From assembly GCA_016841205.1 (NCBI GenBank), contig JAENZP010000006.1, positions 62,001 through 126,000 of the forward strand: a DNA stretch of 64,000 nucleotides. Direction: 5' to 3'. Positions 1,935 through 24,482 of the stretch are shown here, one piece after another; within the stretch, counting starts at the first letter, position 1; each line of letters begins with the position of its first letter. The position numbers and the translations under genes were made by a program. Source of the stretch: Desulfoscipio geothermicus. GTDB lineage: Bacteria; Bacillota; Desulfotomaculia; Desulfotomaculales; Desulfallaceae. A model generated the notes under the pieces. It was not told the origin of the DNA, ran no database searches, and saw only the letters and a program-made list of their open reading frames with translations.

Positions 1935-1963
1935 TTGACAAAAGCTCGACAGTGTATTATTCT
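1935..1963 (+). promoter_or_regulatory. Sigma-A promoter for the DUF2294 gene leader
   Basis: TTGACA (1935-1940), 17-base spacer, TATTCT (1958-1963): a near-consensus vegetative promoter. Transcription from about 1970 would make a leader of about 155 bases that contains the first copy of the two-hairpin element. Confidence 0.7.
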
Positions 1964-2013
1964 ATATGAAAAGAATTTTATTTTAAAATTTTTGTGGGTA
2001 GGCTAAAGAAAAA

Positions 2014-2095
2014 CCTTCGGGTGGTTCGCAGAAGACCGATGTTATCTAGGGAAACTCTGATCAGATTATCCCTTAATAAAATTGGTCTTATCTCA
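2014..2095 (+). promoter_or_regulatory. Two-hairpin leader element, copy 1
   Basis: Small hairpin (CTTC/GAAG) with the loop core GGGTGGTTCG, running directly into a long imperfect stem (2032-2052 with 2069-2089) and then a T-rich tail. The same element recurs at 2589-2672 with the loop kept and stem bases changed, including one paired double substitution (T2040-A2081 versus G2615-C2655). It lies between a strong promoter and the DUF2294 start, the place of a transcription attenuator or riboswitch. It matches no riboswitch class I can recall. Confidence 0.55.
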
Positions 2096-2127
2096 TTTAA
2101 TGTTGACAAACTTTGGGGGCGAATTGG

Positions 2128-2535
2128 ATGGGGGATAACTTAAACAGCGCATACAAAAGAGAAAAAGTTGAACCTAAGCTTAGCGAGCAGCAACGCAAAA
2201 AGTTGCAGCATGAATTTAAAATACATATGGAGCAATATTTTAAACAAATATTAGGTAAAGGTGTTGACTATACCAAGGTTACTATTTGCGAGGATATGCT
2301 GATTATCCGGGGGGAAGGTTTTTTAACGGAGCCGGAAAAGTTTATTGCCCAGACCCACTTGGGCAGGAGAACGATCAGGGCATCAAGATCTCACGTAGCA
2401 ATGCAGCACTGGCATGACAACATAAGATATTTTGAGGAAAAATTAAACGCCAAGGTAATCCATAATATTGGCGGCATGGAACCGGATAGGGATTTTTGGA
2501 TTAATATTATGGTTTTTGACCGTTGTTTAACTTAA
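2128..2535 (+). CDS. DUF2294 / MpsC-like protein
   Basis: A soluble 135-residue protein from ATG 2128, with a GGGGGC ribosome site upstream; an in-frame TTG at 2113 would add five residues. The pattern GKGVDYTKVTICEDMLIIRGEGFLT..E, then R..I.ASRS and a C-terminal D..FWINIMVFDRCL matches the DUF2294 family, whose Staphylococcus member MpsC belongs to a membrane-potential-generating system. No mpsA or mpsB partner is visible, so a bioenergetic role cannot be claimed. It stands alone behind its own promoter and leader element. Family fit is by memory of the motif only. Confidence 0.65.
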   Translation: MGDNLNSAYKREKVEPKLSEQQRKKLQHEFKIHMEQYFKQILGKGVDYTKVTICEDMLIIRGEGFLTEPEKFIAQTHLGRRTIRASRSHVAMQHWHDNIRYFEEKLNAKVIHNIGGMEPDRDFWINIMVFDRCLT

Positions 2536-2588
2536 CTTAGTACATTGGCTAATTAAATAGAAAATATACTTGGTGGACTTAAAAAAAA

Positions 2589-2672
2589 CTTTCGGGTGGT
2601 TCGCGGAAGACCAAGGTTATTAAGGGAAACGCAGGTAGATTGTCCCTTAATAACCTTGGTCTTTCTTTTTTA
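2589..2672 (+). promoter_or_regulatory. Two-hairpin leader element, copy 2, with perfect 21-bp terminator stem
   Basis: First hairpin: CTTTCG (2589-2594) pairs with CGGAAG (2604-2609) around the nine-base loop GGTGGTTCG. Second hairpin: 2607-2627 pairs perfectly over 21 bp with 2643-2663, with a 15-base loop, followed by a run of T. The last three bases of hairpin 1 also start hairpin 2, so the two folds compete, as in an attenuator. It ends 90 bases before the alcohol dehydrogenase start. It could also simply terminate the DUF2294 transcript. Confidence 0.6.
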
Positions 2673-2761: not shown

Positions 2762-3817
2762 ATGTCAGACACTATGAAAGCCTTGGTTTACCGCGGCCCG
2801 GAAAGGATCGGTTTGGAGGATGTGCCGGTACCTAAAATTATCCAGCCAGATGACGCCATTGTAAGGGTTACCACATCTACTATTTGTGGGACAGATATTC
2901 ATATCTGGCATGGCGGCATGCGGGAAGTTGAGCCCGGCAGAATAATTGGCCATGAGTTTGTGGGGGAAGTTGTAGAAGTAGGACCTGCAGTCAGAAACGC
3001 TAAAGTGGGGGATAAAGTTGCCGTTTCTTGTGTTACACAGTGTGGTGAATGCTTCTATTGCGTCCGCGGTATTTATTCGCATTGCACCACCGGCAGCTGG
3101 ATTTTCGGCTATATGATTGACGGCTGCCAGGCAGAATATGTTAAAGTTCCCCATGCTAACCTGGGGATGTTTGAGATACCAGATGGCTTGACTGAGGAAA
3201 ATGTACTATTCGTAGGTGACATTTTATCAACTGGTTACTTCGGTGCGGAAAATGCTGCGATTGAACCAGGGGATGTCGTAGCGGTGATGGGTTGCGGGCC
3301 TGTGGGTATGTGCGTCATGACAACAGCCAGGTTATGGGGACCTTCTAAAATAGTCGCTGTTGATATCAACCAGCAAAGGTTGGATGTTGCATTAGCTCAA
3401 GGTATTGCTGATGTTGCAGTCAACCCCTTGAATGGAGATGCCGTCGAACAAATCAAAGAATTGACCGGGGGTAGGGGAGCTGACAGAACTATTGAAGCCA
3501 ATGGTTTTAAAGCAACCTATGATATGGCCATCGATGCTGTAAGGCCAGGTGGTAACGTTTCCCTTATCGGCGTATTTGAAAAACCCCAGGAACTTGCTAT
3601 GAACACGCTATGGATAAAGAACATTAAAATTAGTATGGGTCTGGTTAATGCCAACCGCATTCCGGAATTAATCAAACTGATTCAAGCAGGGAAAATCAGC
3701 ACCGACTTCCTGATTACCCACCGGGCTCCCTTAAATGATATAGTCACCGGTTACGATGTGTTTGGCAATAAGAAAGACAACTGCTTGAAATGGGTCATAA
3801 CTCCTTATCAGAGATAA
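2762..3817 (+). CDS. Zinc-dependent alcohol dehydrogenase (MDR family)
   Basis: 351 residues from ATG 2762, with the ribosome site AAGGAGG eight bases upstream. The frame is open further upstream, but those codons lie between leader hairpin and SD. Medium-chain NAD(P)-dependent dehydrogenase: catalytic zinc ligands in TICGTDIH and the GHE of IIGHEFVGEV, a structural-zinc Cys cluster CGECFYCVRGIYSHC, and the Rossmann motif VMGCGPVGMCVM followed by VDINQQRLDVA. The structural-zinc loop separates it from the zinc-poor Thermoanaerobacter-type secondary ADH, though the rest is similar. Substrate is not decidable; short-chain primary or secondary alcohols are likely. Probably controlled by the leader element just upstream. 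Confidence 0.9.
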   Translation: MSDTMKALVYRGPERIGLEDVPVPKIIQPDDAIVRVTTSTICGTDIHIWHGGMREVEPGRIIGHEFVGEVVEVGPAVRNAKVGDKVAVSCVTQCGECFYCVRGIYSHCTTGSWIFGYMIDGCQAEYVKVPHANLGMFEIPDGLTEENVLFVGDILSTGYFGAENAAIEPGDVVAVMGCGPVGMCVMTTARLWGPSKIVAVDINQQRLDVALAQGIADVAVNPLNGDAVEQIKELTGGRGADRTIEANGFKATYDMAIDAVRPGGNVSLIGVFEKPQELAMNTLWIKNIKISMGLVNANRIPELIKLIQAGKISTDFLITHRAPLNDIVTGYDVFGNKKDNCLKWVITPYQR

Positions 3818-4038: not shown

Positions 4039-4443
4039 ATGAAAAGATGGCGTGGCGACGTAGGCAGCTATATACATGAGCGGAATACGGCATCGGAGAA
4101 GAACCCCAACTGGGTTAACGAACTGCTTGATTATTATTTCCCCGACAACGAAAAAATAGACCTGGCCCGCGGGAAAACCAGAAATAATTTTGATATAATG
4201 ATAACCTCCGGTCCAGACCTTGTGTGGTCTGGCGACATATGCGGCTATGTACATGAGGGGTATGCGGAAACGGACAAGAGCCCCAACTGGGTTAACGAAT
4301 TGATTGATTATTATTTCCCCGATAAAGAAACAATAGACCTGGCCCGTGGGAAAACCAGAATTAATTTCAGATTTTGGAGATTGGAACAGCCTTCTAAAAA
4401 GGTATTTCCCAGAAGATTAATTTGCGGTAAATTGGTGGGCTAA
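4039..4443 (+). CDS. Small protein made of two tandem repeats, unknown function
   Basis: 134 residues behind a perfect TAGGAGG. The sequence holds two copies of a roughly 47-residue unit spaced 59 residues apart. Each has a G-D...Y.HE entry, then PNWVNEL.DYYFPD and E.IDLARGKTR.NF; about two-thirds of the unit is identical between copies. The C-terminus is basic (KKVFPRR, then CGKLVG). No signal peptide or membrane segment. I do not recognise the family. The near-invariant aromatic/acidic core followed by ARGKTR suggests a ligand- or nucleic-acid-binding unit, but that is speculation. Confidence 0.7.
   Translation: MKRWRGDVGSYIHERNTASEKNPNWVNELLDYYFPDNEKIDLARGKTRNNFDIMITSGPDLVWSGDICGYVHEGYAETDKSPNWVNELIDYYFPDKETIDLARGKTRINFRFWRLEQPSKKVFPRRLICGKLVG
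4054..4372 (+). repeat. In-frame tandem duplication (period 177 bases)
   Basis: The GGCGAC at 4054 recurs at 4231 and the two units stay aligned without a gap to the end of the second. Long identical tracts are shared (for example CCCCAACTGGGTTAACGAA and GATTATTATTTCCCCGA). The nucleotide similarity points to a fairly recent duplication within the gene. Confidence 0.8.
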
Positions 4444-24141: not shown

Positions 24142-24245
24142 TAGGCACCGGCACAATATTTTCCTTCAAGTTTTTAAGCCGGGTATTATTGACACCCATA
24201 GTAGTGCATGCTAAAATACCTTTAGTTTATTCATAATAACAAAGC

Positions 24246-24482
24246 ATTGAAGGGGAATAAGGGTAATTATACTTCGCACAGCGAGCCGGGAATTGGTGTG
24301 AGCCCGGTGGTTGTAGATGTCCGTGCCGCCCCTGAGCCGCAGGCTGAAATTCAATGGATAGTAGGCTGAGCCGTTTTGCCCCCGTTAAAGGGCCCCGAGA
24401 GGATCGTACTTTGAAATAACGATCAACCAGGGTGGTACCGCGAGCAAATCCTCGTCCCTTGTCCAGGGGCGGGGTTTTTTAA
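24246..24482 (+). promoter_or_regulatory. T-box leader (tRNA-sensing attenuator)
   Basis: Stem I has the usual AG bulge and distal GGTGTGAG loop (GCCGGG...GGTGTGAGCCCGG). A CCCCT at 24329-24333 pairs back to AGGGG near 24250. The T-box sequence AGGGTGGTACCGCG is at 24429-24442, and the terminator stem (CCTCGTCCCT with AGGGGCGGGG) with six T ends at 24480. By alignment with glyQS-type stem I, the specifier would be GCC at 24325-24327, which means alanine; that reading is tentative. Controls the lrp-aminotransferase unit. Confidence 0.9.

What the first reader, a model, noticed from the sequence alone, without database searches (positions are those of the whole stretch)
2014..2672. Same two-hairpin leader element in front of two different genes
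Copies at 2014-2095 and 2589-2672 share a small hairpin with the loop core GGTGGTTCG and then a 21-position stem with a T-rich tail. The second stem is perfect; the first keeps 18 of 21 pairs, with a compensatory change (T-A to G-C). Hairpin 1 and hairpin 2 share bases, so they compete. Copy 1 lies in a leader behind a consensus promoter and before a DUF2294 gene; copy 2 lies before a zinc alcohol dehydrogenase. This is the layout of an attenuator that reads a signal common to both genes. It matches no riboswitch class I know.
Basis: partly seen in the sequence, partly recalled or inferred. Interest (0 to 1): 0.65.

Follow-up and report, generated by a model that had tools for sequence, protein, structure and literature searches.

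The report
RNA off-switch paired with DUF2294
Two copies of a small RNA structure that can block its own transcription stop signal sit before a DUF2294 gene and an alcohol dehydrogenase gene; the same pair of switch and DUF2294 recurs, always together, across many Bacillota families, so the little-known DUF2294 protein is probably the regulator that throws the switch.

Summary
The element is real, conserved and apparently undescribed. Both window copies are a 45-50 nt antiterminator hairpin whose 3' foot (ACCAA) is also the 5' foot of a Rho-independent terminator. Its small hairpin 1 is replaced by a longer one: P1 UUGGU/ACCAA, then P2 GGAG/CUCC, a purine internal loop, P3 ACC/GGU and a tetraloop, with strong covariation over 55 copies. 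No Rfam family matches. In genomes from about nine Bacillota families the layout is [element]-DUF2294-[element]-dehydrogenase, always in sense orientation. In 398 phylum genomes, the 19 with the element are exactly the 19 with one DUF2294 (PF10057) subfamily. Within the window's genus, three relatives have both and three have neither. Close dehydrogenase homologues without this DUF2294 lack an intact element. The layout matches the E. coli bgl operon, where antiterminator sites flank bglG, but no BglG-type RNA-binding domain (PF03123) exists in any of 22 element genomes. Best explanation: DUF2294 is a new family of RNA-binding antiterminator that controls its own gene and dehydrogenases, and occasionally genes elsewhere such as an [FeFe]-hydrogenase operon. 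Protein-RNA binding is inferred, not shown; a riboswitch for a shared ligand remains the main rival.

The parts
1935..1963 (+). promoter-like site (TTGACA, 17 nt, TATTCT) of the DUF2294-ADH operon
   Evidence: consensus scan, 10 of 12; not above chance number for the region
1981..2044 (+). element copy 1 (antiterminator): P1 GGU 1997-1999 / ACC 2035-2037; P2 GAA 2008-2010 / UUC 2025-2027; P3 ACC 2013-2015 / GGU 2020-2022; UUCG loop 2016-2019
   Evidence: covariance models R1-R3, 70-84 bits; its isolated MFE is this structure, -10.4 kcal/mol
2032..2098 (+). terminator 1 (18 of 21 pairs) and T-rich tail; its 5' arm holds the P1 3' strand
2128..2535 (+). DUF2294 (PF10057, MpsC-domain) gene, proposed RNA-binding antiterminator
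   Evidence: Pfam E 2.8e-22; subfamily co-occurs with element in 19 of 19 genomes
2556..2619 (+). element copy 2 (antiterminator): P1 UUGGU 2570-2574 / ACCAA 2610-2614; P3 ACU 2588-2590 / GGU 2595-2597; UUCG 2591-2594; P2 reduced to about 2 A-U pairs
   Evidence: 62-75 bits; weakened P2
2605..2671 (+). terminator 2 (perfect stem) and U tract
   Evidence: z -6.1
2762..3817 (+). zinc-dependent alcohol dehydrogenase (medium-chain), regulated gene
   Evidence: ADH_N and ADH_zinc_N; same position in most cassettes

Best explanation
The element is a transcription attenuator of an autoregulated antitermination cassette. By default the terminator stem forms and RNA polymerase stops before DUF2294 and again before the dehydrogenase. 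When the weak hairpin P1-P2-P3 is stabilised, its 3' foot ACCAA is no longer free for the terminator and transcription continues. The stabilising factor is most likely the DUF2294 protein, in a form that responds to a metabolic signal (perhaps alcohol, aldehyde or redox state), bound to the purine-rich internal loops, as BglG binds RAT in the bgl operon. Shown: the RNA structure, its overlap with the terminator, sense orientation before genes, and complete co-occurrence with one DUF2294 subfamily. Inferred: binding by DUF2294, direction of control (ON when bound) and the nature of the signal.
For: Structure: RNAalifold on 13 genus copies finds P1-P2-P3 unaided. On 55 copies P2 pairs in 97.6% of cells, 8 of 11 pairs have double changes, 31 double-change cells against 7.7 in shuffles. 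Competition: in full-length MFE folds ACCA pairs with the terminator arm in 48 of 55; folded alone, P2 forms in 46 and P1 in 43 of 55 (stems). Layout (tallied by hand): 29 copies before an MDR dehydrogenase, 19 before DUF2294, 3 before an ORF fused to ADH codons, 1 before an SDR, 1 before a hydrogenase operon, 2 unclear. Co-occurrence: element and DUF2294 subfamily (E <= 4e-59, next best 2e-17) each in 19 of 398 genomes, the same 19; 1/C(398,19) is about 8e-33 if genomes were independent. Genus: G002-G004 have both, G001, G005, G006 neither. Genomes with only generic or no DUF2294: best hit E 0.03, inside a coding gene. Element follows DUF2294, not ADH: close ADH homologues (77-79%) at loci without it lack the element. 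Layout equals bgl, where terminators with BglG sites flank bglG (PMC9678765). No CAT_RBD protein in 22 element genomes.
Against: No binding data. The DUF2294 model (pLDDT 87) matches no known RNA-binding fold (best Z 6.8, too low to interpret) and no solved relative was found by sequence. The subfamily is not consistently basic. Genomes are related and the cassette is one linked unit, so complete co-occurrence overstates the number of independent events. The only DUF2294-family protein met in the literature searches is MpsC of the MpsABC bicarbonate system, and no RNA role was met there (abstracts only).
Confidence: 0.55

Rival explanations
1. A new riboswitch class: the P1-P2-P3 hairpin binds a small molecule directly and controls DUF2294, dehydrogenases and a hydrogenase as a regulon; DUF2294 is only a regulated gene.
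For: Conserved unpaired purines in two internal loops, aptamer sharing bases with a terminator, several non-homologous downstream genes including ADH, SDR, hydrogenase and an ABM-domain gene, tandem copies (L074, L075).
Against: No element in any genome without the DUF2294 subfamily, although close ADH homologues exist without it. The aptamer would be small, with a single hairpin and no evident pseudoknot.
Confidence: 0.3
2. Another unlinked RNA-binding protein, such as a BglG/LicT, ANTAR or NusG-like antiterminator, reads the element.
For: The hairpin with two internal loops overlapping a terminator is built like a RAT, which proteins bind in known systems (PMC9981650).
Against: PF03123 (CAT_RBD) absent from all 22 element genomes while four control genomes ring. 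ANTAR motifs are two hairpins with hexaloops (own knowledge), not seen here. Distribution follows DUF2294.
Confidence: 0.08
3. Plain intergenic terminators plus a duplicated sequence, no regulation.
For: Strong terminators; the fused LAGLIDADG-like copies and segmental paralogues show that the region duplicates.
Against: A terminator in front of the first gene after a promoter and between DUF2294 and ADH makes no sense without control; 31 double changes preserve a second, competing fold across about nine families.
Confidence: 0.03

Closest known systems
BglG/SacY/LicT family antiterminators and their RAT hairpins (E. coli bgl operon; NagY, PMC9981650)
   Same: Regulator gene flanked by two terminators, each overlapped by a regulator-binding hairpin; autoregulation plus target genes elsewhere; antiterminator and terminator exclude each other.
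   Different: Regulator is DUF2294, not a CAT-PRD protein (PF03123 absent); RNA hairpin is longer (about 45 against 30 nt, the latter from own knowledge) and of other sequence; targets are dehydrogenases, not PTS sugar genes.
Guanidine-IV riboswitch and Gd4v motif
   Same: Leader with a 5' hairpin and a Rho-independent terminator that acts as expression platform.
   Different: Those are two hairpins joined by a pseudoknot with highly conserved loop bases (PMC7736828, PMC9788692). Here the terminator loops vary and can shrink to 3-4 nt (L017, L023) and the 5' hairpin shares its foot with the terminator.
T-box leader (RF00230)
   Same: Antiterminator/terminator competition; the stretch GGGTGGTTCGC resembles the T-box sequence (own knowledge).
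   Different: No Stem I (only about 50 nt before copy 2); Rfam finds the window's one T-box at 24238-24462 and not this element.

Membership tests
BglG/LicT antiterminator - RAT system | CAT_RBD (PF03123) regulator protein in the genome | tested here: not met
   0 of 22 element genomes; four control genomes positive
BglG/LicT antiterminator - RAT system | RNA hairpin whose 3' part overlaps the 5' arm of a Rho-independent terminator | tested here: met
BglG/LicT antiterminator - RAT system | regulator gene flanked by two such sites | tested here: met
   DUF2294 takes this place in many cassettes; bgl layout from PMC9678765
Any Rfam 15 family (T-box, riboswitches and others) | score at or above the family's gathering cut-off | tested here: not met
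   no match on the element in the window or in 11 further loci; only chance-level matches at E up to 10
Guanidine-IV / Gd4v | conserved bases in the terminator loop that pair with hairpin 1 | tested here: not met
   terminator loops differ in length and sequence, down to 3-4 nt
PF10057 (DUF2294, MpsC) | profile match above gathering score | tested here: met
   79.3 bits against 23; a separate subfamily by score gap 4e-59 to 2e-17 and specific residues
Riboswitch (new class) | direct binding of a small ligand | not testable with these tools
   needs in-line probing or transcription in vitro
Protein-dependent antiterminator | DUF2294 binds the element | not testable with these tools
   needs EMSA; only co-occurrence shown

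The most novel reading that the evidence does not exclude
DUF2294 (PF10057) contains a previously unrecognised family of metabolite- or redox-sensing RNA-binding antiterminators with its own RNA target class, controlling alcohol dehydrogenases, its own gene and, at a distance, hydrogenase genes in anaerobic Bacillota.
Probability: 0.5. Interest if true: 0.82.

Novelty: new variant of a known kind. Interest (0 to 1): 0.72.

Why it matters
It gives a conserved, so far uncatalogued regulatory RNA with a named candidate partner protein. DUF2294/MpsC proteins occur in many Bacillota genomes and their molecular function is poorly known; this makes a concrete function directly testable with two small parts. 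It would also add an antiterminator family outside the known BglG, ANTAR, HutP and NusG types, tied to alcohol and hydrogen metabolism of anaerobes.

Tried and rejected
T-box remnant (GGGTGGTTCGC looks like a T-box): rejected, no Rfam match and no room for Stem I. Guanidine-IV variant: rejected on terminator loop. LicT/BglG regulator: rejected. Mobile repeat: rejected, sense orientation before genes in all inspected copies. Fold of DUF2294 as a clue to RNA binding: uninformative; best matches (BcsD, TRAPP, FtsK, Z up to 6.8) are not above background. Charge of DUF2294: uninformative. Weak hits at E 0.01-1 (G172:C24, G000:C6, G000:C19, G155:C37, G001:C1, G431:C7) lie in coding genes without a terminator and were discarded. 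Early pattern hits in G001, G016, G024, G069 lack the flanking structure. Viral contigs: two exact-pattern matches (L069, L070), not examined. Literature: no paper linking DUF2294, PF10057 or COG5609 with RNA was found; most subscription papers are not held. A middle helix between P1 and P2 (e.g. UUC/GAA) appears in many single folds but was not tested statistically beyond the genus.

Full report
What is there. The two copies share a longer unit than the finding says. From 1981 and 2556 on, both read ..GGTrGrCT-A-rich-ACyTTCGGGTGGTTCGCrGAAGACCrA.. and run into a long stem with a T-rich tail. The 21-position stem is as described: 21 of 21 pairs in copy 2, 18 of 21 in copy 1 with one T-A to G-C double change.

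More copies at home. The own genome has further copies: C21 before a paralogous ADH (also after a DUF2294 gene), C15 before an ORF that starts with the first 18 ADH codons, C31 before both genes of a third cassette, and C35 before a NuoE/NuoF/[FeFe]-hydrogenase operon. Three congeners carry copies before DUF2294 and ADH genes as well.

Structure. RNAalifold on 13 genus copies finds, without being told, P1 UUGGU/ACCAA, a short CU/GG, P2 GAA/UUC and P3 ACC-UUCG-GGU, with changes on both sides at three pairs. A covariance model from these copies (R1) found distant relatives in other Bacillota families, and R2/R3 found more. In the 55-copy alignment P2 shows G-C, A-U and G-U in all three positions and 97.6% pairing; 31 cells change on both sides against 7.7 in shuffles and at most 14 in slid versions. 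The apical loop varies (UUCG, UGCG, UGAG, UACG and longer). The alignment was fitted to the model, which leans towards the structure, but the RNAalifold result came before any model.

Competition. Copies are followed by a stem whose 5' arm contains the P1 3' strand. Folded alone, P2 forms in 46 and P1 in 43 of 55; with the downstream arm present, ACCA pairs with the terminator arm in 48 of 55. Copy 1 alone folds exactly into the antiterminator (-10.4 kcal/mol) and with the arm into the terminator (-30.0). Copy 2 has a weakened P2 and alone prefers another hairpin on P1. The terminator wins by a wide margin, so the antiterminator needs help: this suggests an ON switch (inference).

Context. The recurring layout is element-DUF2294-element-dehydrogenase. 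By hand tally, 19 copies precede DUF2294, 29 an MDR dehydrogenase (in L073 a different type), 1 an SDR (L079), 3 the ADH-fused ORF, 1 the hydrogenase operon, 2 (divergent, in G127 and G243) an unclear gene. L079 and L105 have two cassettes in a row; L074 and L075 have tandem copies. Two further sites far from DUF2294 precede an ABM-domain gene (G172, G296). All are on the strand of the gene that follows.

Co-occurrence. A profile of the associated DUF2294 proteins (A7) was searched in the same 398 phylum genomes as the RNA model. It gives 19 genomes at E <= 4e-59, then a gap to 2e-17. The RNA model gives 19 genomes at E <= 0.01. The two lists are identical. In the window's genus G002, G003 and G004 have both, G001, G005 and G006 neither. 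With laxer filters, 22 genomes with the subfamily all have hits at E < 2e-7, while the best hit in 22 genomes without it is E 0.03, inside a coding gene; 14 genomes without it, one of them already in the earlier set, have none at 0.1 (which lacks its own positive control). Models were built from hits in the same genomes and the genomes are related, so the figure 8e-33 is an upper measure of surprise, not a probability.

Element follows DUF2294, not ADH. ADH homologues 77-79% identical to the window's exist at loci without this DUF2294 (G188; G431:C20); they lack the element and carry a palindrome TTGCAGCGCTG(C/T)A near a promoter-like stretch instead. G452 (84%), without the DUF2294, keeps only the 3' half of an element with its terminator.

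Mechanism. The layout is that of the E. coli bgl operon, where two terminators flank bglG and BglG binds a region overlapping each (PMC9678765), and resembles nagY with its distant target hylA (PMC9981650). No CAT_RBD protein exists in any of 22 element genomes. The simplest reading is that DUF2294 plays BglG's part. Its predicted fold (helix, two strands, two helices, two strands; pLDDT 87) has no clear relative among solved structures, so the fold neither supports nor excludes RNA binding. Subfamily-specific invariants include Q27, H28, Y37, G62, E63, F65 and W124. In S. aureus mpsC belongs to the mpsABC bicarbonate system, whose papers were seen only as abstracts.

Known or new. No Rfam 15 family matches the element here or in 11 further loci, and no paper connects DUF2294 with RNA in the library held. 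It works like a RAT system; it is not a member, because the defining protein family is absent. It is not a T-box or guanidine-IV relative by the features tested. Novelty is therefore 'new variant of a known kind': protein-type attenuation with, probably, a new protein and RNA family. If the RNA itself senses a ligand, it would be a new riboswitch class.

Limits. No expression data, no binding data, genome names withheld for most hits. Confirmed named hosts are Sporotomaculum syntrophicum and MAGs filed as Desulfoscipio geothermicus; two other exact-pattern hits (Sphingobacterium, Mycobacterium MAG) were not examined and may be chance.

Noticed in passing
L005 (C15 of own genome), L017, L023: A ~205-aa ORF resembling LAGLIDADG proteins by eye (two 'AYVLGILWA'/'DFILAYLEIH'-like stretches, no Pfam or NCBIfam match) is fused in frame behind the element and the first ~18 ADH codons in three genomes: a leader captured by another gene.
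   Followed up: partly
L081:5473-5537 (G000:C35:90472-90536): Element before a NuoE-NuoF-[FeFe] hydrogenase operon, far from any DUF2294 gene; P1 and terminator present.
   Followed up: partly
L150, L151: Element with promoter-like stretch and terminator before an ABM-domain (PF03992) gene, in G296 and G172.
   Followed up: partly
L170, L188: ADH homologues without DUF2294 carry a palindrome TTGCAGCGCTG(C/T)A near the promoter, perhaps an operator of a DNA-binding repressor.
   Followed up: no
L164 (G452:C25): ADH with only the 3' half of the element plus terminator; 5' half and the DUF2294 gene are missing.
   Followed up: no
L101:3195-3256 and L099:2551-2612 (minus strand): A further element points away from the DUF2294 element in G127 and G243; its downstream gene is unclear.
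   Followed up: partly
window 24238-24462: T-box leader (RF00230, 99 bits).
   Followed up: no
window 4039-4443: Small ORF with an internal duplication (W.GD..YIHE/YVHE..PNWVNEL..YYFPD..IDLARGKTR twice), no family above Pfam cut-off.
   Followed up: no
terminator loops of many copies, e.g. L079, L071, window 2050: The upper part of the terminator often contains GAAACTC or AGGCTC; a possible extra conserved contact not tested.
   Followed up: no
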